Assembly (NCBI GenBank): GCA_933822405.4
Contig: CAKOGP040002036.1
Span: 126,636 to 190,635, forward strand
Direction of reading: 5' to 3'
Length of the DNA stretch: 64,000 nucleotides
Source of the DNA: Cylindrotheca closterium
Lineage: Eukaryota > Bacillariophyta > Bacillariophyceae > Bacillariales > Bacillariaceae
Shown piece after piece: positions 11,731 through 54,884 of this stretch. The position numbers and the translations under genes are program-made. Each line of letters starts with the position of its first letter. Position 1 is the first letter of the stretch. Below the pieces are notes generated by a model. That model searched no databases, was not told the DNA's origin, and saw only the letters and a list, made by a program, of their open reading frames with translations.

Positions 11731-12761
11731 TCATGATCCTTTCTTCCTCTTCGCCCAATAAAGTTCTGGTTCCTCTATCATATCTTGAATGGTTCGTGGT
11801 TCCAACGATGATGATGATGAAGCATCATCTGATGAACCTTCATGGTGCCTTGTTTGGGGGGAAGCTCGGCAAGATTCGTTTTCGTTGGGCAGAATTTGTG
11901 ATCGGACATGATGAGAGCCATACTTTTGGCCGTGATGGTCGCTGTGGCGAGCACTTGGATTCAATCCATATCGAGATGGACTGAATGAAGGACTTTTTGC
12001 AACAGGATTGCTTGCTTCGTCGTCATCAGATAGCTCTGACATAGCCCGTTCCCTTGCATAACAAGCATGAATCGTCTTTTCTCTCTCACGCTTATGTTTC
12101 AGCTCCTGAACGGCTCTCATTGTTCCAGAAGGAGCTGATATAGGCTGCAAGAAATAAGATGCTGGTGTCAAGTTTCCCATCTTGAAATTATAACTGTGAT
12201 CTTCCATCAGAGAAAAGTTAGTGCTTGGAAAGTTGCCATTCTCCATTCGAACAATGGAACTCGGCCTATCACCAGTGTATGTGAACGACTGTTTGAGATA
12301 TGCCTTGCCTGACCCTCTCGTGATACTATTACAAGCATTATAGTCATCACGGGCGAAGATAGGGTGATAATCTGGAGGTAAAAGACATGCTGAGTGAAAG
12401 TTGAAACATATGATATCACTGCGACTCAGTTGCTCGATTTCTTACATCGTCCCGGTTTTCGGCCTTGTCGGACGCATGAGAATCCATAGGCACAAAGCTG
12501 CCTTGTGAAACTTGCATACTTCTTCATTTGAAAGTATTTGACAAGCATTTTTTTCTCAAACTCGTTCGGATCATGTACTGTAAACGATTTTCCATCTTGG
12601 GCCCACGAAATGGTATCTTCCTGATGAGAGTTTTCAGCGATCTGTAACAGGAGGAAGAGCTGCTGTGGGAAAGAAAAGATTGCTGGATCGAATGGCTGCC
12701 TATAGTTTTCCATTGATACCCTCGGTGATGGCATCTGGCCACAAGGAAACTCTTTCATCAT
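11731..12761 (-). CDS. HSF-domain transcription factor, soluble type (array locus 1)
   Basis: Exons 12446-12761 and 11731-12371 give 318 residues; intron GTAAGA to CTCCAG, phase 1 inside the wing of the HSF domain, as in all other loci. The DNA-binding domain spans about residues 27-125, with recognition helix SFTRQLCAYGFSCVRQG and second-exon continuation YHPIFARDDYNA. The linker has an acidic SELSDDDEAS and a Ser-rich stretch. The protein ends LEPRTIQDMIEEPELYWAKRKKGS: it keeps the EPRxIxxM juxtamembrane motif of the membrane-type paralogs but stops where their membrane domain would begin. No HR-A/B heptad array is obvious. Expected to be a nuclear or cytosolic DNA-binding protein. It lies at the left edge of the array. 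Confidence 0.85.
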
Positions 12762-13255
12762 ACTCGATGTATGTATTGATGAGTTGGATGAATTTTGCTC
12801 TGCTTGTTTCCTTCCACAATTCTAGAGGAAAAAGCGTCTGGTCAAGCTTTTCGGGAATGGTAGCTTCTGTTCCCCTTGTTCCCTTGCATGAACTTGTGAA
12901 GCAGGATTTATATTGCGGAAACTATCTATAGGAGTAGGCCGAGACTAGGTATTTTTAATCACATTTGGAATTGACGAATTTTACACACGGTATTGAAGCA
13001 GAAAGAGCAGCGCACGTGTCGAATTTTGCGTCCGAAAGTTCGCATTTTGTTTCCAACAATCAACTCCACGTCTTCAAGCCTGTGTTACCACTACTGGTGG
13101 TCCATTGGGCTGTGAGAACGAGCAGAACACCGCAAATTCTTGTTTACCAATTCTTCTACATGGATGATATTCGCAAGAAAGCCTGAGTGTGGTCGTCATA
13201 GGAATAATGATGGATTAATTGCGTTAATTTCATCCCCCTACAGTAGCACCGTAGC
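12762..13255. other. Intergenic, upstream of array locus 1
   Basis: No gene. Contains single two-unit HSE pieces (TTCggGAA near 12858, GAAagTTC near 13035) and a CACGTG core near 13013. Confidence 0.4.
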
Positions 13256-14429
13256 TACCAGCCACTCTTATAGTCCAATCTTGCAGGAATCGAAAGCATC
13301 ACTCTGTAGGATTCATATATGAACAGTGGTTTCAGGTTTCCAATGTCAGAATAATGCCCAAGGCAAATGCAGAGAATCGCTTTGCCAATTCACGTGATAG
13401 CGTGTCTTGGGACCAGTCGCAAGTCCAACAACGTGAAAGATAGCAAAATTAAGTTAAAGTAGGATATACCAGATAAAATGAATAGGGATGAATTGTCGCA
13501 CAACGCTTTTGGTGGATTTGAGTTGGAATGATTGCCTTCACAGCATTGCAGCTACACTGAATTCAAATCATCTGATTTTTCATTCATCTCCGCACATTGC
13601 TCCCAACAAGAGAGCAATATGCTCAGAGGACCAGGTTATCGGCTCAAAATCATCGTTATTGTCAAGGACTTCTTGTAGTTCTGCATAAAGATTGAAATTT
13701 GGTGACACGGGGATTGGTGTTTCATTATCACCAAGACAGACCAAACCATAGTTCTGAGCGATTTGCTCATGTCGCTCTTGTTGGTCCCCAGTCAGTTGAT
13801 CAGACCGCTTTCTCATATAACACGAGGGTATAGATGCTGCATGACCATCAATGATCGGCACAAAATTCTCAATCATTAACTTGGGATCATCCATCCTTTC
13901 GGAGCTTATTGAAGCAAGATGATGGTGGTGGAAGGAGCCTGAGTACGGAGTGGCGATTAGACTGGATGGTTCGCGCCTTTTCCATGCTTTCGAATAACTC
14001 GCTTTCTTCACTCTTTTCATCAGACACACCGCCTCGGGGTCATTGCGATTGAACTTAGGGTGGGAGTCTGCAAGTTGTTAGAATATGTCATTTGAAGATC
14101 GAAGACCTGAGGATAATGGTATATGTTTTCAACTTACAAATCCCAGTTTGCCTTCCCGTTCTGACACAGCCAAATCCATGGGAACACAACGCTCGAGTGA
14201 AACTAGCATATTTCTGCGTGTTGAAATACTTGGGAAGCAATTCACGTTCAAATTCTTCTGTATCGTGTACTTTAAACGCTGTGCCATCGTTCATCCATGA
14301 GACGACGTGTTCCTGATGATTATCTTCGCAGACTTTCAATACGTTGTAGACTCTCTGAGGAAAGGAAATACGACTGGTTGCCGCTTCATTAGCTTTTGGT
14401 TTGATCTCTGCCATTCTTATCTCTTTCAT
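13256..14429 (-). pseudogene. HSF-domain gene with decayed membrane exon (array locus 2)
   Basis: Exon 1 (14138-14429) encodes an intact HSF domain with SFTRALCSHGFGCVRTG; donor GTAAGTTG and acceptor TTGCAG are kept. Exon 2 is open from 14067 to a stop at 13580 (259 residues in total), ending soon after the DDFEPITWSS motif. Beyond the stop, 13256-13579 still holds scrambled pieces of the membrane exon, including ESYRVMLSIPARL encoded near 13280-13318 and the region matching the tail of the KTHY loop near 13390. The linker also lacks the LYxTxRSQxADRT block. It looks like a decaying membrane-type copy; a truncated soluble product from the 5' part cannot be excluded. Confidence 0.75.
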
Positions 14430-14976: not shown

Positions 14977-16774
14977 CTATTTGTATTTCTTGTCGCCATG
15001 CCGACCTTCCAATCTTGCGGGAATCGAAAGCAGCATTCTGTAGGATTCACAAGTAAATAACGGTGTCAAGTTCAGTATGAAGATTCCAATCAGCTTCAGA
15101 TTCGCGATAGTAAAACAGTGCCCTATGCAAATGCAGAGAATCGCAATCAGGTATCCCAAGAAGATCAATCTCACGATGTCTGCAATCCACCATTCTCCAT
15201 GGACAAAAGGCACGCCCTTCTGGCTATTCATGTGATAGTGCGTCTTTAGACTAGTCGCAAGGTTGGGCGGTTGGGTGCTGATAAAGGCTATCGCCAGCAT
15301 AACGCTCGATGATCCAAAGTATTCTGGAACCAATACCATAGCCGAGAGGAGAGAATGCATCCACATGATGTCCATGAAAATATGCTTCAGCATACTGATC
15401 TTTGGACTCAAGACCAAGTCTTGCGTGTTTGGTCCAAAGGCAGTAAACAAGGCTTGAATGGTATGCCCAACAATGAGGAACATTGCCCAGCACATTCCAA
15501 ATGTTGAAATATCCATGTAGTGGAAAAGAGCAGGTAAAGCGACCGGAGATGAAAAGTCGTACAGCGCTTGGTACCTTGATTTTGGAATGATTGGCATAGC
15601 ATCATACCATGAATTCAATTCATTTGACTCTTCAGTCATTTCCTGAATGCCTCTTGGCTCCCAACAGGAAAGCAATATGTCTTGGTCGGGATGGCTGTGT
15701 TCGCAACCATTTTGCAATGGGGTATGCTCTGGGGACCAGGGTATCGGCTCAAAATCATCTTCATCTTGTGCTATATCGCAGTCGCCAAGGATTTGCGACT
15801 CTGCAGGAAGTCTGAGCTCTGATGACAAGGGGATTGATGGTTCATTATTGCCGAAGACCGAACAGTTGTTGTGAGCGATTTGCTCATGTTGCTCTGGCTC
15901 GTCCCAAATCAGATTAGCCCTTGTAGGACTGTCCATGGTCGGCACAAAGTTCTGAGTAACCAGGTTGGGATCATCTGTCCTCTCGGCGATTGCAGCAAGA
16001 TGGATGCGGCCTGATGAGTGCGAATTGGGTATCGGATTGTATGGCGATTGTCGACCCGTACTATCATCGTCACTTTGTTCGTCCGAAGTGACGTATTGTG
16101 ACCCAGGTGGAAGGCGTATGAGCGCATTTGTTGTTCGATCCGCTATTTGAGACCGAACCGTTTGGTATAGCTGAGCAAAACCTGATGCATTCGCATCTTC
16201 ATCCATGAGCGTTTGAGTATTATTCAGAAGCGATGGAAACACAAATGATCGCCCTCCGTCTCGCGACGATAAGCCATTGCTTCGATTTGATAGCTTGTTC
16301 AGTGCCTTTGTATTGTTCGCTTTCTTCACTCTCTTTATCATCGAAGGAGCATAAGGGTCGTTGCGATTAAACTTAGGGTGGGAGTCTGACAGAAGTTGTT
16401 AGAGAATTTGCCTTCGGAAGTCCAAGCTTATCATACGACGAAGCTTACGATTAAAAGCTAACGATGGGACAAACAAAATTCAACTTACAAATCCCGGTTT
16501 GTCTTCCCGTCCTGACACAATCAAATCCATGGGCACACAAGGCTCTAGTAAAGCTCGCATACTTCTGAGTGTTGAAATACTTGGGGAGCATTTCACGTTC
16601 AAACTGTTCCAAGTCGTGCACTTTAAACGCCGTCCCATCGTTCATCCATGAGACAATGTGTTCCCGATGGTTCTCTTCACAGAGATTCAGCACGTTGTAG
16701 ACCTTCTGAGGGAAACAAAGACGAGTGCTGGCCGTTTTAGCAGCTTTTGGTTTGGTAATTGTCACGTTGTTCAT
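14977..16774 (-). CDS. Membrane-anchored HSF-domain protein (array locus 3)
   Basis: Exons 16489-16774 and 14977-16385 give 564 residues; intron of 103 bp, GTAAGTTG to CTGTCAG, splitting codon 96 in the HSF wing (TGI/Y SHPKFNRNDP). HSF domain about 17-117, recognition helix SFTRALCAHGFDCVRTG, then basic MIKRVKK at 111-117. The linker carries FPSLLNNTQ, LYQTVRSQIADRTTNALIRL, DDFEPIPWSP and EPRGIQEM. The last 200 residues are a hydrophobic domain with about six membrane segments, with MDIMWMHSLLSAM, KTHY and HGEWWIADIVR, ending GDKKYK: a KKXX dilysine ER-retrieval signal. The second exon is a single frame from the HSF wing to the KKXX end, so the fusion does not depend on further splicing. Expected to be ER-anchored with the DNA-binding domain in the cytosol. 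Confidence 0.9.
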
Positions 16775-23216: not shown

Positions 23217-24804
23217 CTATTTGCGTTTCTTTTCGCCAGGCTGATCTTCCAATCTTGAAGGAATTGATAGCAACAATCTGTAGGATTCGAATGCGAGTAA
23301 TGGTGTCAGGTTCATCAAGAAAACTCCGATCACCTTCAGAGTTGGAACAGTAAAACAGTGCCCTAGGCAAATGCAGAGAATCGCTGTTAAGTAACCCAAG
23401 AAGATCCATCTCACGATGTCTGCACTCCACCATTCGCCATGAACAAAAGGGACACTCTGGTTTTGGCTATTCATGTGATAGTGCGTCTTAAGATTTGTTG
23501 CAAGGCCAGGCGGTTGGGTGCCGATAAAGGTTATGGCCAGCATAACACTTGATGCTCCAAAATATTCTGGAACTAATACCATTGCCGAGAGGAGAGAATG
23601 CATCCATATAATGTCCATGAAAATATGCTTCAGCATGCTGATCTTCGGACGCAGAACCAAATCAGCTGTATTCGGTCCATAGGCAGTGAACAAGGCTTGA
23701 ATGGTGTGCCCAACGATGAGAAAGGTTGCCCAGTATAATCCAAATGATGAAATATCCATAAAGTAGAAAAGACCTGGTAAAACGAACGGAGATGAAAAGT
23801 CGTACAACGCTTGGTACCTTGGCTGTGAAAACATCGGAAGCACATTATACAATGCATTCAAATCGTCTGGGTTTCGTTTCATCTCCTGGATAGTTCTTGG
23901 CTCCATCGAACTCAGAGACGAATTACCTTCGGAATGATCAAGTACACCGCAATTCTGCGTTGAAGTCTGCGGTGACCAAGGTATCGGTTCAAAATCATCT
24001 TCGTCATATTCCTCTAAGTCATCCGTGATATGGTAAGAACTAGACCTCACAGATGATGCTGATGCTGATGCTGAATCGTGTCCACCCGCACTACTGTCAT
24101 CGCTACTTTCGTCTGAACTCACGAAATGAATCCCCGGCGGAAGACGTATCAGCGCCTTCGTTGCTCGATCAGCTATTTGAGACCGTGTCGTTTGGTACAG
24201 CTGACCTAGAACTGTTGCATTATCATCTTCAGCCATTCGATATTGCGGGTTATCCAGAAGCGATGGAAATGCCATGGGTCGCTTTCTATCTCGCAACAAC
24301 AAGCCATGACTTCGATTCGATACACCTTCCTTCAATGCTTTCTTATTCTTCGCTTTCTTCACTCTCTTTATCATCGAAGGAGCATAAGGGTCGTTGCGAT
24401 TAAACTTAGGGTGGGAGTCTGACAGAAGATGTTAGAGAATTTGCCTTCGGAAGTCCAAGCTTATCATACGACGAAGCTTACGATTAAAAGCTAACGATGG
24501 GACAAACAAAATTCAACTTACAGATCCCGGTTTGTCTTCCAGTTCTGACACAATCGAATCCATGGGCACACAGCGTTCGAGTAAAGCTAGCATATTTCTG
24601 AGTGTTGAAATACTTGGGAAGCAGTTCACGTTCAAACGCTTCTACATCGTGTACTTTAAACGCCGTCCCACTGTTCATCCATGATAATATGTGTTCCTGA
24701 TGAGTATCGTCACAGAGTTGAAGCACATTGTAGACCTTCTGAGGGAAACAAAGATGGGTCCTGGTCGTTTTAGCAGCTTTGGGTTTGGTCATTGTCATGC
24801 TCAT
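23217..24804 (-). CDS. Membrane-anchored HSF-domain protein (array locus 6)
   Basis: Exons 24522-24804 and 23217-24418 give 494 residues; intron of 103 bp differing at only one base from that of locus 3. HSF domain about 16-116, with SFTRTLCAHGFDCVRTG (Ala to Thr next to the contact Arg) and SHPKFNRNDPYAPSMIKRVKK. Linker: LYQTTRSQIADRATKALIRL, YDEDDFEPIPWSP, EPRTIQEM. Membrane domain about 295-483 with GHTIQALFT, MDIIWMHSLLSAM, KTHY, HGEWWSADIVR and ESYRLLLSIP; C-terminus GEKKRK, a KKXX signal. No defects seen. Its promoter carries GTACACGTACACGTGTAC about 147 bp before the ATG. Confidence 0.9.
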
Positions 24805-26703: not shown

Positions 26704-28324
26704 CTATTTGCGTTTCTTAACACCATGCTGAACTTCCAACCTTGCAGGAATCGAAAGCAATAATCTGTAGGATTCGCATGCGAATAATGGTGTTAGATTC
26801 AGTACGAAGGTTCCAATCACTTTCATATTCGCGATATCCCAAAAATGCCCCAGGCAAATGCAAAGCATGGCAATGAAGTACCCAACGAAGATCCATCTCG
26901 CGATATCTGCAATCCACCATTCTCCATGATGTACAAAAGGCGCGGCCTTTTGGATATTCATGTGATAGTGCGTCTTTAGACTAGTTGCAAGGTTGGGAGG
27001 TTGGGTGCCGATAAAGGTTATGGCAAGCATAACACTTGATGATCCAAAGTATTCTGGAACCAACACCATAGCAGAGAGGAGAGAATGCATCCACATAATG
27101 TCCATGAAAATATGCTTCAGCATGCTGATCTTCGGACGCAAAACCAAATCTTGCGTGTTTGGTCCAAAGGCAGTAAATAAGGCTTGAATGGTATGCCCAA
27201 CAATGAGGAACATTGCCCAGCACATTCCAAATGATGAAATATCCATAAAGTAGAAAAGACCGGGTAAAGCGACTGGAGATGAAAAGTCGTACAACGCCTG
27301 GTACCTTGGCTTTGGAATCACTGGTAGGATGTTGTAGAATGCATTGAAATCTTCTGGATTCCTTTTCATCTCTTGAATGTTTCGTGGCTCCAAGGAGCCA
27401 AGCGATGCTTCATCATCTTCAGAATGATCAGGTACGCCAAAATTCTGCGATGAACTGTGCATTGGCAAAGGTATTGGTTCGAAATCATCATGGTCCAGGA
27501 TTGAGCCAGAGTTCTGAGCTGTTTGATCATCATGTTTTTGTTGGTCAAAGGTTGCCCTATTGTAATCTGGGACGACATTGTAGGAACTTGAGGGTACAGC
27601 TGATGCCGACGGCGGGAACTGACTGTTCAGGGATTCGTGTTCACCCGCGCTGTAATCATCACTTTCGTCTGAACTGATGAAGTGTGAGCCTGGTGGAAGA
27701 CGGATGAGCGCATATGTTGTTCGATCTACTATTTGAGAGCGAGCCGTTTGGTACAAGTGACCAAAAATCGATGCATTATCATCTGCATTCATGTGAGATT
27801 GGGTATTGTTCAGAAGCGATGGAAACATAAATGATCGCCCTCCATCTCGCAATACTAAGTCATGGCTTCGATTTGATAGTTTGTTCAACGCTTTCGCATG
27901 GTTCGTTTTCTTCACTCTCTTGATCATAGAAGGAGCCGCGGGGTCGTTGCGATTAAACTTAGGGTGCGAGTCTGAAAAGTTCACACGAGTTTGTCAGGGG
28001 AAATGGCAGGGGAATGATGACATACTGTATATCAGTCATCAACTTACAAATCCCAGTGTGGCTCCCCGTTCGTACACAGTGAAATCCATGGGCACACAGC
28101 GCCCGAGTAAAGCTAGCATACTTCTGAGTATTGAAATACTTGGGAAGCATTTCACGTTCGAACTGTTCCAAATCGTGTACTCTGAAGGCTGTCCCATCGT
28201 TCATCCATGAAACTATGTGTTCCTGATGAGTATCTTCACACAGTTTGAGTACATTGTAGACTCTTTGAGGAAAACAAAGACGAGTGCTGGTCGTTTCAGT
28301 AGCTTTTGGTTTTGTACGTGACAT
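26704..28324 (-). CDS. Membrane-anchored HSF-domain protein (array locus 7)
   Basis: Exons 28048-28324 and 26704-27971 give 514 residues; 76-bp intron, GTAAGTTG to TTTTCAG. The frame runs upstream to 28468, but the Met at 28324 aligns with the starts of the paralogs. HSF domain about 14-115 with SFTRALCAHGFHCVRTGSHTGI. Linker: FPSLLNNTQ, LYQTARSQIVDRTTYALIRL, HDDFEPIPLP, EPRNIQEM. Membrane domain about 315-503: GHTIQALFT, MDIMWMHSLLSAM, KTHY, HHGEWWIADIAR (one extra His), ESYRLLLSIP; end GVKKRK, a KKXX signal. It is the only locus with a perfect three-unit heat-shock element, 81-93 bp before the ATG, which suggests control by an HSF. Confidence 0.9.
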
Positions 28325-28844: not shown

Positions 28845-30159
28845 CTATTTGCCTTTCTTATCATCAGTCTGATCTTCCAGTCTTGTGGGAACCGATAGCA
28901 GCGTTAGGTTCATGAAGGAAACCCCAGTATCCTTCAGCATCCGCGGCTTCAAAATCAAGTAAAATGTATACGGCGCACAGGTAGTCCTTAAGGATTCAAT
29001 GGTGTACCCCACAACGAGAGAAAGCTTGCCGCAGTAGTAGAGGAGTCCAAATGATTGAATATCCATGGAGTAGAATGGAATAGACCAGGTAAAGCGACCG
29101 GAGAAGAATTTTCGTTCTCAAAACTTGGAATGCTGGGTTTGTTAACATTGGACGAACATGTAAATGCATTTATAACTTCGAAATATTCTTTCAGCTCATG
29201 AATACTTCTCGACTCCATGACAGGAATGCCTCATCTTCTGCATTATCAAGCATGCCGCAAATTTTCGATGCAGAGTGCGGTAACCAGGGCAGCGGCTCAA
29301 AATCAGCATCTATTGAATCATATCCGTCGCTTGACGGCAAGGGAATCGGTGTAAAATCATCATCTAGGATTGAATCAGCGATCTCCTGGGCGTATTGCTC
29401 ATCCTGGTTTTGTTCGACAAAGGTTGTCATGTCGTAATCTTCTGTAGCGAGAAGGCAGGAAGCAGACCGAACAATCGGGTTGTATGGCGATTGTTCACCA
29501 GCACTCTCGTCGCCACTTTCGTCTGAGCTGACCAAATGTGACAAAGGTGTTCGATCGGCAATTTGAGACCGAATCGTTTGATATAGATGACCAAAAACTG
29601 ATGCATCAGCATCTTCATTCATGAGCGACTGCGTAGTATTCATAAGGGACGGAAATGCAAATGATCGCTTTCTATCTCCCAATGAAAAGCCATGACATCC
29701 AGTTGATAGCTTGGTCAATGAAGCCTTCGCATTGTTGTTCGTTTTCTTTACTCGCTTGATCATAGACGGAGCCTCAGGGTCGTTGCGATTGAATTTAGGG
29801 TGGGAGTCTGCAAAAAGCTGTTAGATAATATGCCTTGCTAAGTTCATTCTTAAGATGGTGACATCAATCGACAACTTACAAATGCCGGTTTGTCTTCCGG
29901 TTCTGATACAATCAAATCCATAGGAACACAACGCTCGAGTAAAGCTAGCGTATTTTTGAGTGTTGAAGTACTTTGGAAGCAATTCACGTTCAAACTGTGC
30001 GATATCGTGAACTTTGAACGCCGTCCCATCATTCATCCACGATGCGATATGTTCCTGATGAGTATCGTCACAGAGGTTCAGCACGTTGTAGACTCTCTGA
30101 GGAAATGAAATGCGACTGGTGGTCGTTTTAGATTTTGGTTTGGTAATTGGCATGCTCAT
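28845..30159 (-). pseudogene. Membrane-type HSF-domain pseudogene (array locus 8)
   Basis: Exon 1 (29880-30159) and exon 2 (from 29807) are open to a stop at 29191, giving 298 residues with an intact HSF domain (SFTRALCSYGFDCIRTG), LYQTIRSQIADRT and FEPLPWLP. A frameshift just before the EPR motif (now read as WSREVFMS, with MESRSIHEL in another frame) puts the membrane exon out of frame. That exon also has large internal deletions, losing the MDIMW...KTHY...HGEWW centre, but still ends DDKKGK. Its 5' 700 bp is nearly identical to locus 9, so that duplication is recent. Confidence 0.85.
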
Positions 30160-31224
30160 CTTTGCAGTTTTGTGGTTTGATGGTTTGATGTTGTGACGTT
30201 TTTATGGTTTGAAGCAGCCGTCCAAAAGTTTGGGTCTCACGTTGGTGACAGAGATTAGGCACTGTCGACTTTGTGAACGTAGTTGTACGGCACATCTCAG
30301 GAAAAAAAGATGAAAAAAAATCGGAGTTGACAGGGACCCTTTCCCAAAACCGATTTCACAAGTTTTGGTTCGTTTGTGTAAGTACTAGCAGCGCGTAGCC
30401 TGAACGTAAGTTGTTCTGGTGCTACCAAAAATCCTTCTGCTTTCGCGTGAATCGTTGCTTCGAACTTGCATGTCAGCATTTTATTTATCACATTTTGATC
30501 ATGCGGAGTGACTTTCCGCCGTTGTTTATATGATTGTTTTCCCTGAGGTTCTGGTCGCAGAACGCATGCCCGATGGAGGACTGGAAGTTCCAGCAAGCTT
30601 CAATTGCTTCTTGACAGTACCTGTACACGTGTACCACCACCATGATGAGTTTCACAAAATGAGACTTCTCATCCCCAGTTGCAGGATAATTGGGGGTAGG
30701 TACACCAAAACCTCACATCTCATAGTACGTCTCATATGGGTCATCGTATAGTTGTTGCATTGCCGTAAGTGCAAGACTGAAGGATCGCCTGCTCATCTCC
30801 TTTAAAGCACCATCCATTGTAAGATATTTCCCCTACTATGCATTTCATCCTACTGTCGTAGAAAAAGTGTGAGCCAACAGCCAACCACTTAATGTCGTCC
30901 AAACTCCTAGTATTAGTAGCAACTCTTCTTCATTGCGATCAATGATATCATGTTGAAGCCAAATACCAGAAGGAAGGCACCCATCTGCCATGTCTATCTG
31001 GTGTCATGCCAGTACCAGTACCAATACCAACTTCACCAGGTACAGTAACGGTGAAGATTGATATGTGCGTCGTCGTGCCCGTCATTGGTACGTTACGAAA
31101 TATCGAAGAATGTTGGACGGATTCATTCTTTGATCCTGAAGCAGCTGTACTTTTGGATGCGCGCGTTCAAAGTGAGAGCTTTTAAAAAACACATTTCATG
31201 GCGTCTATAGTAATGAGGTAGTAT
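30160..31224. other. Intergenic between array loci 8 and 9
   Basis: No gene seen. GTACACGTGTAC lies at 30623-30634, about 465 bp before locus 8. The segment 30240-30560 is loosely similar to 33010-33250 upstream of locus 9 (both share GGAGTTGACAGGGA and TTGTCAGCATTTTATTTA-like pieces), so the duplication of loci 8 and 9 included upstream DNA. Confidence 0.45.
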
Positions 31225-31365
31225 GTGTAAGAATATCCAGTACCTGTGACAAATGGGGAAGTGAGATGTAAACTTCCAACCCCAAAGATACTTCATGTAT
31301 TTAGGGGAGACCCATCTTGCCACGGGGAGTCCATAGCTTAGTGGCACATCTCTACATTTTGTACA
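31225..31365. repeat. 141-bp direct repeat, copy 1, with tRNA-like promoter boxes
   Basis: This segment recurs at 31635-31775. Its end, plus the 22 bases after it, reads like a Pol III internal promoter: TAGCTTAGTGG at 31334-31344 (A box) and GGTTCGACTCC at 31377-31387 (B box), 32 bp apart. The acceptor stem and D stem do not pair, so this is not a working tRNA; a tRNA-derived SINE is possible. Confidence 0.5.
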
Positions 31366-31775: not shown

Positions 31776-31898
31776 AGTATGGTACAGACTACAGGAATGC
31801 GACAAGAGAGAAATCTTTGAAAAGAGTTTGGTGCCTTGGGCTGGACATATTGTTAGCATATTGTAAAATTGTATTTAAAAAAATTATCTGAATTTTCT

Positions 31899-36412: not shown

Positions 36413-37741
36413 TCAGTAATTTGTAGCCATGCTATGAAAAGGTGACTTTTGCATGTTTCCCACAAGGAACGATGAGCAAAACAAGCTCCACCCCTTTACT
36501 ATCCTTGTATGATTCTCCTCGTCCGAAGTCAACGATGAGAAAGGCTGCCAAGAATATTCCAACTGATGAAACATCCATCTAGTAATATTAGCACAGACCA
36601 CAAGCAGGTAGTGATTGGAGAGAAACATTCGTACAGCGCATGGTACCTTGATCTAGGACACATTATGGTAGCATACTGAAGAATTGAATTTTTTTAAAAG
36701 TTGCCTGAATTTTCTCAACAGATTAATGCTTCTCGGCTCCATACCAGAATGAAATAAATGCCTCGTCTTCGGAATGATCAAGAATGCCGCGATTATTCAA
36801 TGTAGTGTGGGGTGAGCAGGATAGCGGCTCAAAACCAGCACCTTCCAAAGCATTTCCCTCACTCGTTGATGACGAAATCGGTACCAAGTCATCATCGCGG
36901 ATTGAACCAGAGTAATGATGAGCAAGATGACCATGCTGGTTTTGTTGGTCCAAGATTGTCGTATTGTAGTCTGCTGCAATATGGTAGGAACTAGGCAGTG
37001 CAACTGACGCCGATGAAGGGATGGGAATGCATGGTGATTGTTCACCCGTACTCTCACCGCCACCACTTCTGTCTAAGCTGACAAAACGTAGATGGTGATG
37101 GTGCTGAATCATTGCCTTTACTGTTGTTTTTGTTCGATCAGCAATTGGAGATGCAACAGTTTGGTACAGCCGACCAAAAACTGATGCATAATCATCATCA
37201 TTCATGACTGTGTGGGCATTGTTCAGAAACGATGGAAACATAAAAGATCGTTTTCCACCTCCCACCGATGACAAGTCCCCTTGGCTTACATTTGATATCT
37301 TTTTGTTCAATACTTTTGCATGTTTCACTCTCTTCACTCTTTTCATCATAGACGGAGCCTCGGGATCGTTGCGAGTGAACTTGGGGTGGGAGTCTGGAAG
37401 AAGTGGTTAGACAATTTGCGTGGGGAAGTTGAAGCTTTCCAGATGACAAAACATTACAACTTACAAATCCCGGTTTGTCTTCCAGTTCTGACACAATCAA
37501 ATCCATGGGCACACAACGCTCGAGTAAAGCTGGAGTATTTCTGAGTGTTGAAGTACTTGGGAAGCAATTCACATTCAAACTCTTTCACATCGTGCACTCT
37601 AAAGGCTGCCCCTTCGTTCACCCACGACACTATGTGTTCCTGATGAGTATCTTCACACAGTTTGAGTACATTGTAGACTCTTTGAGGAAAACAAAGACGA
37701 GCGCTAGTCGGTTTAGTAGCTTGTGGTTTTGTACTTGACAT
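36413..37741 (-). pseudogene. HSF-domain pseudogene with decayed membrane exon (array locus 10)
   Basis: Exons 37465-37741 and 36723-37393 read as 315 residues: HSF domain with SFTRALCAHGFDCVRTG (but an NDG to NEG change in the turn), the wing HPKFTRNDPEAP and a damaged linker motif (LYQTVASPIADRT). It ends in FWYGAEKH because of a one-base frameshift; the next frame reads GMEPRSINLL, the EPR motif. Downstream 36413-36680 holds weak traces of the first membrane helix region. Like loci 8 and 9 it is cut exactly at the linker-membrane junction. Confidence 0.75.
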
Positions 37742-38450: not shown

Positions 38451-40240
38451 TTACTGCACTTTCTTCTTCGCAACGCGTGCTTCTGAAGTCAATCCAGCTA
38501 CCGCAGACACTGAAAGCAAGTATCGGTAGGACTCAAATGCAACCAACGGTATCATGTTGAACCCAAACACCAGCGGAATTCGCAACGAAGCCATTTCGAA
38601 TACGTGTACCAGGACGATACCTAGTATCGTGAAACCGTAACCCAAGAGTACCTTCCTGACGATGTCACCAATCCACCATTTCCCATGAGCATACGTACCC
38701 TCGAGATTGCTTTCACAATAGTGCGTCTTGATAGCAATGGACAGATTGAACGGTTGCGGCCAAATAAAGAGGTATAAAAGTGCATAGCACGGAGCTCCAA
38801 AGTAGTGCGGCGTCAATATCATGTTCGAAAGAAGTGAATGGAACCACAGCAAGTCCATGATATGATGCTGAAGCATTCCAATCGTGGGTTTGATGCTGAG
38901 GTCCTTCGTGTATGTCTTGTCCTTTTTATCTTCTGCACCTCCCCATGAAGTAAACAGACATTCCACAAAATGTCCCAAAATGAGGAAACAGACCCAATAG
39001 ATTCCATAGGAGGAAACATCCGCGACATAAAAGCCAATTGGTAATGAAACCGGGAGCGAGAACTCAAGCAAGGCTCGCCTTCTCGGGGTGCCAAGCAATG
39101 GGACCGAGTCGTACATCCATGTGTTTGCGGTTGCTGGGTCTTGGACCATCTCATTGATCGGTCGAGGCTCCAGAATAGAGGAGTCGAGTTGGATCGGCAG
39201 AACAGAGTCAATGTCACCCTCAAAAGGAGTCGGTAATGGTGACCATGGTATGGGTTCGAAATCGCCGTCTTCTCCGAACGAGTCATCATCTTCCTCAGGC
39301 ACCATTGCCATCTGACGAAACATGTCATCATCAACAATATTCATGTTCATATTCATATTGTAGTGGGCACCCATGCCAGATGGCTTTGGTGATGAAACAC
39401 TATTGTTCATGCTTATGAAGCTTGATTTTGTAGATATTGATGAAGTATCACTAACCGCTCGATTGTGGTTTGTATTCTGATTTGTATTGGGAGACCAGAA
39501 CGCATTGTCTGGATTGCTAAAAGGGTTGTCCGAAGCTTCGGAAGGGATCCTTATGAGTGCCTTTCTGGTTCGATCGGCAACTTGAGCGCGGACAGTATTA
39601 TACAGGTTACCCATTGGCCCCGAGGGCTGGCTATTATCGAAAGTCAGAGTCCCAAAATTAGCTTCTCCATTTTGTGTGCTTGGCTTCAAAAGTGAAGGGA
39701 ACTGAACAACAGTGTCTCCTGCACGAATCCCCAGGTGAAAGTTTGAGAACCGACTGATGTTTGATGCTGCTTGATTGTGCTCTGAGATTGCCTTTTTGGA
39801 TATGGTTTTCGTTTCTTCTCGTTTCAACAAGCACGAGCCTTTTGGGTCGTCGCGCTTGAAGGCTGGATGAGAATCTGTTGGGTAAGGTTCACAGAACGTT
39901 GAGATGAGCAACCGTGAGTCAAGGGATGAACAACAGCAGTTCGCATGTTCTGATGATTCATTCCAAATCGGAGTGACTCACAAATTCCAGTATTCCTTCC
40001 TGTCCGTACACAATCAAAGCCATAGGCATGAAGCTGTCGTGCAAAGCTTGCATATCGTTTGGTATTAAAATGTTTCTGAAGCAAGACCTTTTCGAACTTT
40101 TCCCTATCATGAACTTTGAAGCCAGTACCATCGTTAACCCAGGAAAATATGTCTTCCCATCCTTTATCTTCCGTTAGCTTCAGAAGCTGAAACAGCCGCG
40201 AAGGGAAGGGCACTCGGCCACCCTTTTTCTTTACTGCCAT
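38451..40240 (-). CDS. Membrane-anchored HSF-domain protein, second clade (array locus 11)
   Basis: Exons 39982-40240 and 38451-39874 give 560 residues; intron GTGAGT to CAACAG at the same codon. HSF domain about 9-107, helix SFARQLHAYGFDCVRTG (keeps the canonical Arg-Gln pair) and wing HPAFKRDDPKGS. Linker: FPSLLKPST, LYNTVRAQVADRTRKALIRI, DFEPIPWSP, EPRPINEM. Membrane domain about 345-545: GHFVECLFTSW, a Lys-rich loop EDKKDKTYTKD, HHIMDLLWFHSLLSNM, KTHY, HGKWWIGDIVR, ESYRYLLS. End AKKKVQ, a KKXX signal. The first loop is 11 residues longer than in the first clade. Intact and probably functional. Confidence 0.9.
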
Positions 40241-43947: not shown

Positions 43948-45185
43948 CTACATCCACGGTGTGCTCAAGCTTGCTGGGTTCTCGACCATCTCATCGATTG
44001 GCCGAGGCTCTAGAAAGGACCCAACTTTGTCCGGTGATCCAAAGTCATCTTCGTCTTCATCAAACACACTGCCTGCTGGTGACCAGGCCGTAGCATCCCA
44101 GTCGTTGTCATGGAACAAACAATGGTCTTCGAGCGGAGTTTTCAATGGAGTCATGCCATCAAGATGATTCAATGGAATTGGATCAAGATCATCATAATCG
44201 TCACGAATAAAGCTGCGGTTTGCAAACACAGCGTTTGATTTGGATTCATCCAATACCGTATCCATTCGAGATGGGTAATATGCTGAAGCCGCCCCAGCAG
44301 TGGCGCGAGCCTTTGTTGATAGTGAAACATCACTAACCACTCGATGGTGATTTGTAGAAAGAGAGCAGAACGAATTGTCTGGACAATGAATTTCGGATGG
44401 GTCGCGCATTAAAACCCTGCCATCAGAAGTGGTACCAGACCAGAACCCACTCTCCCTTCTTTTGAATGGAAGATCTTGAGTAGTAGCTTCGGAAGGAATC
44501 CTTGTGTGCGACTTCTTTGTTCTATCAGCAACTAGAACAGTATCGTTTAGGCTTGACATAACTGACGAATGGTGAGTACCGTCATCAGTCATCCCTGAAT
44601 TGTTCTTCTTCATATTTGGCAGGCCCCTTGCATTGGGTCTCTCCAAAAGCGAAGGGCAAAGCACAATAGCGTTGTCTTCTAGAATTAAGTTGCGTAGTCC
44701 TGCGAGACGTCCATCCAATCCCTCTTCGTCTTGCTGTTCCTGGCAGCGTCTAGAGACCATTGCTTCTTTGGAGATGTTTCTTCCCTTTTCTCTCTTCAAT
44801 GCAAACGAACCCTCTGGATCATCCCTCCTGAAGTGGGGATGCGAGTCTGCGAGATCGACCAAGGTGGAGCAAAACAGGTTCATGTGTACGTTAGAAGAGG
44901 AAGAATGCAGAGCACAACCACTCAACATCATGATTACAGTGACTTACAAATTCCAGTTTGCCGTCCTGTTCGGACACAGTCAAAGCCATAGGCATGAAGC
45001 TGCCTTGCGAAGCTTGCGTATCGCGTTGTATTGAAATGTTTTTTAAGCAAAACATTTTCGAACTTGCTCCTGTCATGTACTTTGAATCCTGTCCCATTGT
45101 TTACCCATGAAAATGTGTCTTCCCATCCATTCTCATCAACTAGCTTCAATAGCTGAAACAATCGTTGAGGGAACTTTGCCATCAT
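43948..45185 (-). CDS. HSF-domain protein without membrane domain (array locus 13)
   Basis: Exons 44948-45185 and 43948-44846 give 378 residues (starting at the second Met, 45182, gives 377). HSF domain from residue 3, helix SFARQLHAYGFDCVRTG, wing HPHFRRDDPEGS. The linker keeps CPSLLERPN, a shortened LNDTVLVADRTKK block, DLDPIPLN and WDATAWSP, then FLEPRPIDEMVENPASLSTPWM and a stop where paralogs continue WMYDS (TAC to TAG). The membrane exon behind it is deleted. The 300-codon second exon has stayed open although diverged from locus 14, which suggests a retained soluble factor rather than a dead copy; a recent pseudogene remains possible. Confidence 0.7.
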
Positions 45186-49236: not shown

Positions 49237-51006
49237 TTAGCTGATTTTCTTCGCATGTGAGACGACACCTAGCCCAAGTAGTGTCAATGGTGCTGATAGC
49301 AAGTACCGGTAGGATTCGAACGCGAACAGTGGTATCATGTTGAAGCCAAACACAATCGGGATCCGCAAAAAGTTCATGTTGTAAAAGTGCATGAAAAAAA
49401 CACCCAGCGTTGTCAAGGTGTATCCTATGAAAACCTTCTTGACAATGTCACCGATCCACCACTTTTCATGGGTATATGTACCCTCAAGATTGCTTTCACA
49501 ATAGTGCGTCTTGATTACAATGACAAGATTGACTGGCTGTAGTCCAATGAAAAGGTAAAAGAGTGCAAAGCAGGAGGGTCCAAAGTAGTGTGGTGTCAAC
49601 ACCATGTTGGACAGAAGTGAATGGATCCACATCAAGTCCATAATGTGATGCTGGAGCATTCCAATGGTAGGTTTGATGCTGAGATCCTCAGTGTACGTCT
49701 TGTCCTTTTTATCGTCTGCGCCTCCCCACCAGGTAAACATACATTCCACAAAGTGTCCAACAAGGAGTAAGGTGATCCAGCATATTCCATAAGTAGAAAC
49801 ATTCAGGACGTAAAAGCCAAGCGGCAAAACCATTGGGAATGAGAGTTCCACTAAAGCTCGCTGTCTCGGAGTTGCAAAAATTGGGATCGAATCGTACATC
49901 CAAGTGTTCGCGCTGGATGGGTGTTCGACCATCTCGTTGATAGTTCGAGGTTCGAGAGAGGGTTCGAGTTGGTTGGGTGGTATAGCGTCGTCCTCGTCTT
50001 CGTCATAATCATCATCGTCGTCCGAAGAGTGGAATGCGTCCGAAGAGTGTAGTGGTGACCATGGTATCGGTTCGAAATCTTCTTTTTGGAACAACAACAT
50101 GGAGCCATTCCCGGTGCTGTTTTCCGCCGAGGTTCTCATTGGAACTGGTTCCAGATCATCAAAGTGCTGGCTTCCTTGGGCAGACGCATCGTCCGCTATC
50201 ATGTGCATTCGAGATGGGACATTCATGTTATTATCATTGTTCATGGAACCACCGCCACCAGCAGTCGTGATGCCCGACCAGGACCCAGTCTTCCCATTTA
50301 TACGATGATTCCCAAAGGGAAGATCATCATGCTGCTGGATAGTAGTAGCTCCAGAGGGGATTCGGATAAGTGCCTTTTTGGTTTGATGCACAACTTGAGA
50401 GCGCATGGTATTGTATAGGTTGGACATGACCGATGATGAATTTTGACTACTGTCATCGCTTTCGCTAGAGGTTTCCAAAAGCGAAGGGACTAGCACAATG
50501 GTATCGCCTGCAAGTACAAAATTGCGGATTCCACCACCACCGGGTTGGAATTCCTGTTTGTGTACACCATGGATTGTTTCTTTGGAAACATTTTTTCCCA
50601 TTTTTCTCTTTAAATTGGCAGAACCCTTGGGGTCGTCCCGTTTGAACTGTGGATGAGAGTCTAATAGTACGGTACGAGATTGAAAGTCAACAATAATACA
50701 TTATTAGACGAGGAAGGGCAAGATGAAGCAGCCTAAACCACAATTCAGCATCACCCATTGTAGCAACTTACAAATTCCAGTATTCCTTCCGGTTCGTACA
50801 CAATCAAAGCCATAGGCATGAAGCTGGCGCGCAAAGCTTGCATATCGTTTGGTATTGAAATGCTTCTGAAGCAAGACCGTTTCGAACTTTTCCCGGTCAT
50901 GCACTTTGAAGCCTGTGCCGTCGTTAACCCACGAAAATATGCCTTCCCATCCTTTCTCTTCTGTGAGCTTCAGAAGCTCAAACAATCGTCGAGGGAACTT
51001 TGGCAT
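49237..51006 (-). CDS. Membrane-anchored HSF-domain protein, second clade (array locus 15)
   Basis: Exons 50772-51006 and 49237-50660 give 552 residues; intron GTAAGT to TATTAG at the shared codon. HSF domain begins at residue 2 (MPKFPRRLFELLKL), helix SFARQLHAYGFDCVRTG, wing HPQFKRDDPKGS. Linker: VPSLLETS, LYNTMRSQVVHQTKKALIRI, DFEPIPWSP, an acidic Asp/Glu run, then EPRTINEM. Membrane domain about 335-535: GHFVECMFTWW, DKKDKTYTED, HHIMDLMWIHSLLSNM, KTHY, HEKWWIGDIVK (HG to HE), ESYRYLLS; end HAKKIS, a KKXX signal. No lesions. It is the right-most membrane-type locus. Confidence 0.9.
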
Positions 51007-51727: not shown

Positions 51728-52821
51728 CTAATTCTGGTTCGTGCGACCCTTGTTTAGATTCAGCATATTTGGGTTGAATCCATGATGTGATGGTGGAAAT
51801 GGTCTTGGATCAAAATCACCCTCACGGACAGAAAAGTCAGTAGTAGTAGTAGTAGTAGCAGCAGCAGGAGATCTGCTGATAACATCTGTGGATGCCAAAA
51901 GATGTTGTCGCAGTTTCTCATTTTCTAGCAAAGTATTGGTAGCACTCATTTGTGGCGCATGATGATTGCCCAATCCTCCCCCATAGGCATTCATCAAGGC
52001 AGCGCTTGTGGCCACAGAAAGAGACCAAAAGCTTGAACCTCTTCCGTTCATGTTCATATTGAATGGGAAACGGAGCTGTGGATGATTGGCAAGCAGTGTC
52101 TTTTTCGTCTGATCCGCCACTGTCGCAGCGTTCTTGTATAGCTTGGACGTAGTTGTTGTTGTGTTGGTGGTAGAAGAAGTGGCCGAGTCACTACTACTGG
52201 AATCGCCCTCTTGACTGTCCGATTCACTGGAAGAGTTATTCTCCACCAACAAAGGCATGTCGACAATGGTCTTGGCAGCTCCTCCTCGAACTTGCTTTTC
52301 TTTGGAGATTTTTGCACTGGATTTCAGTCTTCCTACTTCTCTTTCTAGAGAGCAGGAAGACTGTGGATCATTGCGATGAAAGCTTGGATGCGAGTCTGAA
52401 ACAACAACAAAAAGGGAAATTTAATTTTGTTAGAAACGATTGACTTGCAATTTTTTCCCTTTTTATAATTTACGATTGACTTGGACTTCCCAGCAATCAA
52501 CAAATCGAAATGCCAACATTCAATAATTCAGTAAAACTTACAAATTCCAGTCTGTCTTCCTGTTCTTACGCAGTTGAAACCATAGGCGTGAAGCTGTCTG
52601 GTAAAGCTAGCATATTTCTTGCTGTTGAAATACGTAGGAAGAAGTCGTTTTTCAAACTCTTCAATTTCGTACACTCGAAACGCTTTGCCATCATTCACCC
52701 AGGAAATGATATGATCCCAACCATTCTCTTCCACCAGCTTTAGCAGATGGAATAGATGCCCTGGAAAATGCGGGCGACGGTTCTTCCTCGATTGCTGTTT
52801 TCTCTTGTTGTTTCCCGTCAT
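51728..52821 (-). CDS. HSF-domain transcription factor, soluble type (array locus 16)
   Basis: Exons 52542-52821 and 51728-52395 give 315 residues. I start at 52821 (MTGNNKRKQQ), whose basic stretch precedes the HSF domain; the frame is open to 52944. HSF domain about 15-115, helix SFTRQLHAYGFNCVRTG, wing HPSFHRNDPQSS. The linker has a Ser/Asp/Thr-rich run, LYKNAATVADQTKKTLL (a variant of LYxTxRSQxADRT) and EGDFDPRPFPPS (variant of DDFEPIPWSP), and the protein ends soon after. There is no EPR motif, membrane domain or dilysine end. It shares enough linker motifs to be an outgroup of the membrane clades and may resemble the ancestral soluble form. Confidence 0.85.
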
Positions 52822-53882
52822 CTCTTGCAATTTACTGGTTCGGTAGGGTTTGCGAATGGTGCTCGTTCGGGATAATGAAGGACAGCGCGAGTTTGGTGTT
52901 TTGGGTAAGCTACCACGAAACCACGCCCGTTGTAGTGAGACCACTTAATTCGGTCGTAGGACCTTTAAGTACGGCTGGACTGTGACATTCCTTCGACGCT
53001 TCGTATCAGCGTAGGAATGACGATTGGAAGGACTTGGTGGTTCGTATTTTGGTACTGAAATCACTGGCACGACCGAGGAGAACTTTGGATCGACGCTTCC
53101 ACTTGCAACAAATACTAAATTCTATTCCCTTTGACTTGCTTCTGATCAGGACGACAGTGGCCTCGACGAATGAAAATGCGTAATTCCTAAAATCCTTCTG
53201 CTCTTGTCTGGTCAAAAAAGTCTGTTCAGAAATCGAGGAAATTCTTGAACCCACCAAAAAGCGATCTGGGGAGCGACCCATCTCCTCCAACTATTCCGGT
53301 ACGGTACGGTAGACGCGAAGTAAAAAGTTTCCTGCATGAAGTTGTATTGTGTACCCGTGAGAATGCGATGTCTGCGATTTGTTTTGTGTGAGATGGAATG
53401 AATTTCTCTTTTGGCAAGAGATTCATTCAGCTGAGGACTAACTAATCCGTTTGTTGTGGTTTGTAGCTACTAAAAATTAGAAAGTGTTGATGATAGCATG
53501 TATGTACATATGTAGTTAGTAAGTAATATTAGATATTGTAGATATTGTTGTATGGGGTAATATATAAAGTTCTGTGTATATATTTTCTATGCACCTGGCA
53601 GCATATCCTTTTCGACTTGCCACTCGGAAAAGAATGGCAAGGTTCCAAGTGAATGTAATCGGAGGGTGTATCGCAATCGGTACACAATCCGAGCCACTTG
53701 GAATCAGATCAAAATGGATAAGATCCAATGCTGTCAATCAAGACAGGCATTTAGACCTTTAGAGCAAAGGAATCGAGTGTCTCAAAGAGCGATTCAGGGC
53801 CAGCTTTCGCGGGTCCTTGATCAGCTTCGGCGGAGGATGGTTCCATTGTTCCAGAAGAGGTACATAGAGAAGGAGTTCCTAG
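52822..53882. other. Intergenic between array loci 16 and 17
   Basis: No gene is supported; 53000-53420 contains frames on both strands without recognisable domains. AT-rich near 53490-53600. Confidence 0.4.
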
Positions 53883-54884
53883 TCAAATGGGGGTCGACAC
53901 AGTGGAAATGGATTGTGGCTCGTACATGCCGGCAAGCAACTCTTCGTCCGTTGGTTCCACATAGTTGGACTTGTTGTTGTTGTTGGAGAACATGCTGGAG
54001 AAGCCGTTCAAAGATGCCGAAAATTCTCTCTTTTGGGGCAACAAGGCATTCTCCCAGTTAAAGACTGGAATGGGTTCCAAATCATCCATGGAGACTCCAG
54101 TCCTGTAGCCTCCATTGTCACTTTGCGAGTCATCAGAAGAGTCCAAGACTGGCAGAGAATACTGGCTAATCTTTCGTGCATGTGGAATAGCCGGTGCTTG
54201 TGCCGTTTGGTTTACGGTTGGCTGAGAAATAGAAGTAGCAGTCTTGGGAGCGCAAAGGAGATTGTGAAGATGGCTGAGCTGATTGGTGTGATCCGCACTG
54301 GTGTATCGCCCATTGCTGCCAAAGACAGCTGGGAATTCAAAGGTCTTGGCGGTAGATTGAGGAATTCCAGCTTGCACATTCGGAACTCCTGCCTTCATGA
54401 TTCCTTGGTGCTTGGTGAGCATTGGAGTCTCGACGGATGGTCTGGAGACATGCGATTTGGCAGTCTTCTTGGCCGATTCTCGTCGGATCTGGAAGGATCC
54501 AGCAGGGTCGCTGCGATGGAATCCTGGATGAGAGTCTAAAGTAGTCAAGGAGGGGGGAAAGTGGTCGTGTTAGTGTGATGTGATCCCACAAAATGGATGG
54601 ATCTTTGTTTTCCCGCTTGCAATGCACTTACAAATACCAGTCTGTCGTCCAGTTCTCAAGCACGAGAATCCATAGGCACACAGCTGTCGGGTAAAGCTAG
54701 CGTATTTCTTCGTGCTAAAGTACTTGGGCAGCAATACATCTTGGAATTCCTTCAGGTCGTGAACCTTAAAGGCAGATCCATCGTTGACCCAAGAGACAAC
54801 GTGGTCTAGTCCCTTCTCTTCGACGAGTTTTAGAAGAAGGAAGAGACGTTGGGGGAAACACGGTCGGTTGTTAGTTTTCATCAT
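53883..54884 (-). CDS. HSF-domain transcription factor, soluble type (array locus 17)
   Basis: Exons 54632-54884 and 53883-54535 give 301 residues; intron GTAAGT to CTTTAG at the shared codon. HSF domain about 7-105, helix SFTRQLCAYGFSCLRTG, wing HPGFHRSDPAGS. The linker has FEFPAVFG in place of FPSLL, MDDLEPIPVFNWENALL matching the DDFEPIPW block, and near the end DEELLAGMYEPQSISTVS, which resembles the acidic-plus-EPRSI motif of the paralogs. It ends there with no membrane segment. A normal-looking soluble factor at the right edge of the array, and with locus 1 the most likely outgroup. The plus-strand frame 53913-54539 is an antisense shadow. Confidence 0.87.

What the first reader, a model, noticed from the sequence alone, without database searches (positions are those of the whole stretch)
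11731..54884. Tandem array of HSF-domain genes in which most carry a C-terminal multi-pass membrane domain
Seventeen loci on one strand share an HSF DNA-binding domain and an identical intron. Seven are intact fusions to a hydrophobic domain of about 200 residues in the same exon as the HSF wing, so the fusion is read directly and does not depend on an unproven splice. HSFs are known as soluble nuclear/cytosolic trimers; membrane-tethered transcription factors are known from other families (ATF6, SREBP, some plant NAC and bZIP). I know of no described HSF-family protein with such an anchor. It would make a membrane-to-nucleus signalling system.
Basis: partly seen in the sequence, partly recalled or inferred. 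Interest (0 to 1): 0.95.

Follow-up and report, generated by a model that had tools for sequence, protein, structure and literature searches.

The report
ER-tethered heat-shock-factor family in diatoms
A marine diatom carries a row of genes for gene-switch proteins of the heat-shock-factor type that are built into a membrane by a multi-helix domain and end in a label that normally keeps proteins in the endoplasmic reticulum, which suggests a one-protein route from that membrane to the nucleus.

Summary
The window (Cylindrotheca closterium) has 17 HSF loci on one strand; 16 have a complete core and the same phase-1 intron, and 7 are intact HSF-plus-membrane-domain genes whose spliced models equal deposited C. 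closterium proteins. Elsewhere the exons are joined in RNA: two MMETSP transcript-derived ORFs encode the same architecture across the predicted junction (one starts inside the DBD). Both domains are under purifying selection. The membrane domain models as six helices (the first weak by hydropathy), matches no known fold convincingly, and in this genome was found only on HSF-array contigs.

This is the classical COPI/ER-retrieval signal and predicts an ER protein with both ends cytosolic. Of the 9 array members lacking the domain, 6 carry remnants of it or stop just before helix 1, so the tether was probably lost repeatedly.

Best reading: an ER-resident, membrane-tethered HSF released (most likely by proteolysis) to the nucleus. 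Release, signal and targets are inferred. Membrane-tethered transcription factors are known; this HSF family, as far as searched, is a new variant.

The parts
14977..16774 (-). Intact HSF-TM gene: ATG 16774, intron 16386-16488, exon 2 with HSF wing, linker, membrane domain, C-terminus GDKKYK; 564 aa
   Evidence: Spliced model equals deposited protein P0016; PF00447 67.4 bits
18915..20496 (-). Intact HSF-TM gene, 503 aa, C-terminus GAKKHK
   Evidence: Equals P0020
21209..22750 (-). Disabled HSF-TM copy: DBD fragment 22481-22750, membrane domain 21209-21838 with an in-frame stop
23217..24804 (-). Intact HSF-TM gene, 492-494 aa depending on start, C-terminus GEKKRK
   Evidence: Equals P0019 from ATG 24798; longer start ATG 24804
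26704..28324 (-). Intact HSF-TM gene, C-terminus GVKKRK; the deposited model starts at an internal Met (28204), although the frame is open to ATG 28324 and beyond
   Evidence: P0015 equals the model from 28204; upstream ATGs in frame at 28324, 28372, 28384, 28465, 28468
38451..40240 (-). Intact HSF-TM gene (clade B), 560 aa, intron 39875-39981, C-terminus AKKKVQ
   Evidence: Equals P0003
41088..43030 (-). Intact HSF-TM gene (clade B), 572 aa from ATG 42898 (616 aa from ATG 43030), C-terminus DAKKIK
   Evidence: Equals P0006; longer frame
49237..51006 (-). Intact HSF-TM gene (clade B), 552 aa, C-terminus HAKKIS
   Evidence: Equals P0010
38454..39086 (-). Membrane domain of the clade B reference copy, with the KKxx tail
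   Evidence: AlphaFold2 model m8e34b95a6c87, mean pLDDT 81.7, helices 35-55, 60-78, 105-125, 134-142 + 145-160, 169-197, 200-226
13261..14429 (-). HSF locus without an intact domain: 259 aa ORF from ATG 14429; decayed membrane-domain remnant 13261-13465
28848..30159 (-). HSF locus, 298 aa; decayed membrane-domain remnants 28848-29215, including a remnant of the KKxx tail (DDKKGK)
30916..32891 (-). HSF locus, 306 aa (P0028); 354 bases of DBD region identical to the neighbour at 29752-30105; weak remnants near 31807-31923 (E 0.07) and 30916-30969 (E 0.002)
36498..37741 (-). HSF locus, 315 aa; frame-broken remnant of the start of the membrane domain at about 36498-36663 (best E 7e-4)
43948..45185 (-). 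HSF locus (clade B type), 378 aa, ends between the conserved EPRPI-EM motif and the first membrane helix
46262..47463 (-). HSF locus (clade B type), 366 aa, ends in the same stretch
11731..12761 (-). HSF locus without membrane domain, 318 aa; ends ...LEPRTIQDMIEEPELYWAKRKKGS, which also fits KKxx
51728..52821 (-). HSF locus without membrane domain or remnant, 315 aa
53883..54884 (-). HSF locus without membrane domain, 301 aa; no convincing remnant

Best explanation
A family of membrane-tethered HSF-type transcription factors resident in the endoplasmic reticulum. The N-terminal HSF domain and an acidic, aromatic-containing linker (DFEPIPWSP) face the cytosol; six helices span the ER membrane; the C-terminus returns to the cytosol and carries a COPI dilysine retrieval signal (KKxx). 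In the resting state the protein is held in the ER (or the chloroplast ER, which in diatoms is continuous with it; recalled). A signal sensed by the membrane domain or its partners releases the DNA-binding part, most likely by cleavage at or near the first helix, and it enters the nucleus. Shown by computation: fusion, transcript-level joining in relatives, purifying selection on both domains, six-helix model, near-invariant KKxx. Inferred: ER location, cytosolic orientation, release by proteolysis, the signal, the target genes, and that domain-less paralogues act as soluble versions.
For: Fusion and splice; 7 of 7 intact models equal deposited proteins. RNA: MMETSP-derived ORFs P0007 and P0023 read ..GIYSHP.. 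across the junction, whereas the contig-derived P0009 reads through the intron. Function kept: dN/dS - DBD core 0.02-0.24, median 0.15 (clade A, 21 pairs) and 0.05-0.07 (clade B, 3 pairs); membrane domain median 0.29 (range 0.18-0.52) and 0.16; linker 0.53 and 0.36. ER signal: K at -3 in 23 of 23 and at -4 in 22 of 23 relatives, while the other 13 of the last 15 positions are 10-25% identical; shuffling each tail gave at most 5 in 20,000 runs; the tail evolves freely otherwise (median dN/dS 0.69 and 1.20). Control: 0 of 32 HSF ORFs over 180 aa from 40 other fetched regions of the genome end in KKxx. Topology: six helices at mean pLDDT 81.7; K+R per residue 0.10-0.21 in loops 2, 4 and tail, 0.00-0.03 in loops 1, 3, 5. 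No other source of the domain seen: 17 own-genome hits, all on three HSF-array contigs. Common origin: all 12 TM-linked DBDs fall in one clade at 100/99.
Against: No transcript from C. closterium itself, no localisation, no cleavage site found. Helix 1 of the model is weak in the hydropathy scan (2.4, where helices 2-6 score 7-12 in P0003; not listed separately in P0007, P0023, P0024, P0027); with five spans the C-terminus would be luminal and KKxx could not work. The loops used for the charge test are short (2-8 residues for loops 1, 3, 4, 5) and the stretch before helix 1 is not K/R-rich (0.067). KKxx relatives are not independent, so the shuffle overstates the case. Three mechanically listed ORFs without the domain also end in KKxx (15 of 181, 12 of them with the domain), one being the array member at 11731. 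KKxx says nothing of release. No HR-A/B-like heptad was seen in the linkers, so trimerisation, usual for active HSFs, is not accounted for.
Confidence: 0.5

Rival explanations
1. Permanent membrane regulator: the HSF domain works from the inner nuclear membrane, which is continuous with the ER, holding or silencing target genes at the nuclear edge, without proteolytic release.
For: KKxx, N-in/C-in six-helix model and the lack of a recognised cleavage site fit an ER/nuclear-envelope resident; the part before the membrane domain is about 260-370 residues, small enough for lateral diffusion past pores (recalled).
Against: The acidic aromatic linker motif conserved before the membrane domain looks like an activation motif (by eye); no inner-nuclear-membrane sorting feature was tested.
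Confidence: 0.25
2. Membrane enzyme, transporter or receptor whose HSF domain no longer regulates genes; it is a regulatory or scaffold domain.
For: The domain has conserved polar residues in or near helices (H73, H108, D112, H117, K154, H156, N211 at 90% or more) and no convincing known fold.
Against: The DBD core is the most constrained part (dN/dS 0.02-0.24) and matches PF00447 at 54-70 bits in 8 of 8 proteins scanned; SFxR of the recognition helix is kept in 16 of 16 complete loci.
Confidence: 0.12
3. Artefact: neighbouring exons or a pseudogene array misread as fusions.
For: Several array members are broken, and the array is a tandem repeat.
Against: Seven open exon-2 frames of 404-508 codons; transcript-derived and other-organism proteins with the same architecture; purifying selection.
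Confidence: 0.03

Closest known systems
Canonical heat shock factors (HSF1/2/4 type)
   Same: HSF-type DNA-binding domain; the best PDB sequence matches are 5d5w ('putative transcription factor') and then HSF DBDs (1hks, HSF4, HSF2, HSF1)
   Different: C-terminal membrane domain and KKxx; no HR-A/B-like heptad seen in 9 linkers with a simple score, which found it clearly in only two of ten other HSF ORFs of the same genome
Plant NAC-TM1-like and bZIP membrane-bound transcription factors (NTL, bZIP28/17/60)
   Same: DNA-binding part at the cytosolic end and membrane anchor at the C-terminus; latent until released (recalled; review PMC9237531: start of abstract and a term search only)
   Different: Most predicted Arabidopsis MTFs have a single span (63-93% by method; PMC5694209, section read); here a multi-helix domain without known fold and a dilysine signal
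SREBP/SCAP and ATF6
   Same: ER-held transcription factor idea; a multi-pass sensor is part of the SREBP system (recalled)
   Different: Sensor and transcription factor would be one chain here; no luminal S1P-type site was sought systematically; none of these families appeared among the Pfam matches
HSFs listed among predicted plant membrane-bound TFs (PMC5694209, Table 3)
   Same: HSF proteins predicted to hold a membrane segment: 6 in 14 species
   Different: In-silico calls in land plants; their sequences were not examined here; the section read reports no multi-helix HSF family

Membership tests
HSF superfamily (PF00447) | HSF-type DNA-binding domain over curated cut-off | tested here: met
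   8 of 8 scanned full proteins, 54-70 bits against a 22-bit cut-off
HSF superfamily (PF00447) | Recognition-helix core SFxR(Q/A/T)L (motif recalled) | tested here: met
   16 of 16 complete window loci, read from the cores printed; Q is replaced by A or T in clade A types
Canonical HSF | HR-A/B trimerisation coiled coil after the DBD | tested here: inconclusive
   Best heptad score 0.28-0.46 in 9 of 9 linkers; of 10 other HSF ORFs two scored 0.88 and 0.76, one 0.52, two 0.26-0.36 and five had no proline-free window; home-made score
Membrane-tethered transcription factor | DNA-binding domain and membrane segments in one expressed chain | tested here: met
   Transcript-derived P0007 and P0023 (P0023 holds only profile positions 22-99 of the DBD); six-helix model
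Membrane-tethered transcription factor | Release from membrane and entry into nucleus | not testable with these tools
   Needs localisation and fractionation
ER-resident protein with dilysine signal | KKxx or KxKxx at the extreme C-terminus | tested here: met
   22 of 23 KKxx, 1 of 23 KxKxx; of all 27 listed relatives 22 and 1
ER-resident protein with dilysine signal | Cytosolic C-terminus | tested here: inconclusive
   Six model helices and charge bias agree; hydropathy leaves helix 1 in doubt
Known membrane-domain families (Pfam) | Pfam match of the membrane domain | tested here: not met
   17 members of A2 scanned; best E 0.064, no family matched by more than one member
Known membrane folds (PDB) | Structural match covering the domain | tested here: inconclusive

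The most novel reading that the evidence does not exclude
A single-chain sensor-and-switch: an orphan six-helix domain with membrane-buried histidines and an aspartate senses a membrane, metal, redox or lipid cue in the ER or chloroplast ER of pennate diatoms and directly frees its own HSF DNA-binding part, so that diatoms have an ER- or plastid-envelope-to-nucleus pathway built from one protein and tuned by repeated loss of the tether in tandem copies that become constitutive soluble paralogues.
Probability: 0.3. Interest if true: 0.92.

Novelty: new variant of a known kind. Interest (0 to 1): 0.8.

Why it matters
Diatoms have very many HSFs (151 domain matches in this genome, a capped first look), and what most of them do is, to my knowledge, an open question. 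A membrane-tethered branch with an ER signal says that part of this expansion may serve signalling from membranes, not heat shock, and it gives a directly testable start: tag, change the last four residues, stress, and look for the nuclear fragment. It would also extend membrane-tethered transcription factors to the HSF fold and to a multi-helix domain of unknown fold.

Tried and rejected
Fold searches of the membrane domain: PDB, PDB second look and viral gave no convincing match; rhodopsin-like, zinc-transporter and helical-bundle rows were not used. A first, shorter fold (mean pLDDT 76.4, first helix missing because I cut the alignment's first row too short) was replaced by the second.

Search for a free-standing ancestor of the membrane domain: own genome and database gave none clearly apart from HSFs. 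P0004, P0011, P0012, P0013, P0022, P0025, P0026, P0027 and P0029 are listed without PF00447. Of these, P0022, P0027 and P0029 carry the HSF wing; P0011 is on array contig C476; P0013 is numbered next to the HSF protein P0005 on a contig of the same length; P0004 and P0012 lie on contigs of 1.0-1.1 kb; P0025 and P0026 begin inside the linker, on contigs of 6.5 and 5.8 kb that I did not see. I read all as pieces or partial models of HSF-TM genes. The database search is seeded by short exact words and scored only the 7994 best candidates, so absence from other diatoms is not shown.

S1P-type site (RxxL) near helix 1: looked at by eye only; dropped. DBD tree: 63 rows and 70 columns are too few to place single losses; the TM label needs 6 changes on it and no bootstrap tree has it as one group, which fits losses but equally several gains; only the main clade is used. 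Rows dropped before the KKxx count of 23: P0013 (its end departs from the family), P0014, P0028 and P0029 (no complete domain). The HR-A/B score failed to find a coiled coil in most control HSFs and is weak. Paper searches showed no report of HSF membrane proteins in diatoms; most subscription journals and bioRxiv are not held.
Full report
WHAT IS THERE. The window is contig C485:126636-190635 of a 47.6-Mb assembly. Proteins identical to its genes are deposited for Cylindrotheca closterium, a pennate diatom, on a contig of the same length, 234,829 bases. On the minus strand between 11731 and 54884 a profile made from nine DBD cores finds 17 HSF loci, 16 complete and one fragment. All 16 complete ones have one intron of 70-146 nt at the same codon and phase. 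In seven loci exon 2 runs without a stop from the HSF wing (SHPxFxRxDP or close) through a linker (148-273 residues in nine family members measured) into a hydrophobic domain of about 190-210 residues with its tail. The seven spliced models are identical to seven deposited proteins; P0015 starts at a later Met.

IS THE FUSION REAL. Two proteins in the database come from MMETSP transcript assemblies: P0007 (585 aa) and P0023 (577 aa). Both contain PF00447 and the membrane domain and read GIYSHP across the predicted junction. P0023 begins at an internal Met and covers only profile positions 22-99 of the DBD. P0008 and P0021, from JGI contigs of 2,019 and 1,790 bases, read the same junction. P0009, from a 1,894-base contig, instead reads the intron in frame (GICKFF...FFEDSHP), as unspliced DNA would. 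The species behind the MMETSP entries was cut off in the listing, so this is not shown to be RNA from C. closterium. A MAG of Bacillariaceae sp. has two relatives with consecutive locus numbers (P0005, P0013), which suggests a tandem arrangement there too.

SELECTION. Between paralogues the DBD core has dN/dS 0.02-0.24 (median 0.15) in clade A (21 pairs) and 0.05-0.07 in clade B (3 pairs). The membrane domain has median 0.29 (range 0.18-0.52; clade A, 7 genes) and 0.16 (clade B, 3 genes); the linker 0.53 and 0.36; the last 13-14 residues 0.69 and 1.20. Both domains are therefore kept as protein. The simple Nei-Gojobori counts do not model gene conversion, which is likely in this array.

THE MEMBRANE DOMAIN. 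A hydropathy scan of eight TM proteins gives five clear segments in the domain and, in some, a weak one at helix 1 (2.4 in P0003, 2.5 in P0016, 4.5 in P0009); P0009 has two extra ones in its unspliced intron and linker, P0019 one weak one before the domain, and the domain-less P0028 none. AlphaFold2 with 24 sequences gives six long helices at mean pLDDT 81.7, pTM 0.77. With helix 1 entering from the cytosol, K+R per residue is 0.111, 0.103 and 0.209 in loop 2, loop 4 and the tail against 0.000, 0.026 and 0.000 in loops 1, 3 and 5; several loops are very short, and the 20 residues before helix 1 are only 0.067. Pfam has no match (17 members scanned, best E 0.064) and solved structures give no convincing fold. 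In the own genome the domain was found 17 times at E<=0.1, intact or decayed, all on the three HSF-array contigs C485 (11), C476 (5) and C567 (1).

THE ER SIGNAL. Of 27 database relatives listed, 22 end in KKxx and one in KxKxx; the other four lack a complete domain (P0014, P0028, P0029) or end differently (P0013). Among the 23, K is at -3 in 23 and at -4 in 22, while the other 13 of the last 15 positions show 10-25% pairwise identity, counted from the end without gaps; shuffling the last 15 residues gives a mean of 0.46 and at most 5. The relatives are not independent, but the tail is otherwise nearly free to change, so the two lysines stand out. None of 32 HSF ORFs over 180 aa in 40 other fetched regions ends so (some of these ORFs may not be the last exon); of 181 mechanical ORFs of 150 aa or more, 15 do, 12 of them with the domain. 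KKxx at a cytosolic C-terminus is the classical COPI retrieval signal of ER membrane proteins (recalled).

ORIGIN AND LOSS. In a tree of 63 DBD cores from this genome all 12 TM-linked cores, 11 array members without the domain and one further HSF (L050, contig C68) form one clade at 100/99; few columns make the inner order uncertain, and the TM label needs 6 changes. Two of the 12 are incomplete genes: one is cut by the contig end and one has a broken start of exon 2. Of the nine window members without the domain, four have remnants (13261-13465; 28848-29215 with a KKxx-like tail; 36498-36663; weak ones near 31807-31923 and 30916-30969) and two stop just before helix 1 (43948, 46262). The locus at 11731 has only the EPR motif; 53883 and 51728 show no convincing trace. 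L050 and an HSF on C567 (L034) are likewise cut just before or inside helix 1. So the tether is probably old in this clade and soluble versions arose from it more than once; several gains are not excluded.

HOW IT MAY WORK. Best supported: an ER-resident HSF with both ends in the cytosol. The likely function, release of the DBD by cleavage after a cue at the ER or chloroplast ER, is inferred from the architecture and from membrane-tethered transcription factors in general. The linker motif DFEPIPWSP is acidic with aromatic residues and may be an activation motif (by eye). No HR-A/B-like heptad was seen in 9 linkers with a simple score; the score found one clearly in only two of ten other HSF ORFs (0.88, 0.76), so this is weak. 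The domain's conserved H73, H108, D112, H117, K154, H156 and N211 could bind a ligand; this is untested.

KNOWN OR NEW. A plant survey counts 6 HSFs among predicted membrane-bound factors in 14 species (PMC5694209, one section and passages read). A term search of a review of plant membrane-bound factors found no mention of HSF (PMC9237531). A recent HSF guide mentions 'transmembrane' four times; the passages shown concern adhesion receptors (PMC12366260, passages). Eight paper searches (listings and abstract starts seen) showed no HSF membrane family in diatoms, within the limits of an open-access library. I file it as an HSF-type, membrane-tethered transcription factor: a new variant of a known kind.

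Noticed in passing
whole genome G000: 151 HSF-domain matches in 47.6 Mb; contigs C36 and C408 carry four pairs of hits with equal scores and may be uncollapsed haplotypes or recent duplicates.
   Followed up: no
window 28058-28324; P0015, P0021, P0023: Three sequences from different sources start at the same internal Met (MNxGTAF) inside the DBD, although the window gene is open further upstream; possibly a shorter isoform lacking the first part of the DBD, or a recurrent annotation effect.
   Followed up: no
window 25859-26581: Further decayed membrane-domain pieces downstream of the intact gene at 26704, without a recognised HSF core: perhaps an extra dead copy.
   Followed up: partly
window 16386-16488 and 24419-24521; 29752-30105 and 32484-32837: Two non-adjacent genes have introns differing at 1 of 103 bases, and two neighbouring loci are identical over 354 bases of the DBD region, which suggests gene conversion or recent duplication.
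   Followed up: partly
window 4820-5632 and 6798-7607: Two stretches beside the array, 778 identical of 784 aligned bases and about 1,976 bases apart: a recent tandem duplication of unknown content.
   Followed up: partly
window 8001-10000: GC falls to 24% and long ORFs overlap in several frames on both strands, as in low-complexity DNA.
   Followed up: no
L033:1853-4143 (contig C567): Two adjacent, similar-looking genes for hydrophobic, probably multi-pass proteins of about 270-290 aa lie beside the HSF array on C567; no obvious similarity to the HSF membrane domain by eye.
   Followed up: no
P0007 and P0008: Two HSF-TM proteins from different sources are identical over the last 104 residues but differ upstream, as after gene conversion or as an assembly chimera.
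   Followed up: partly
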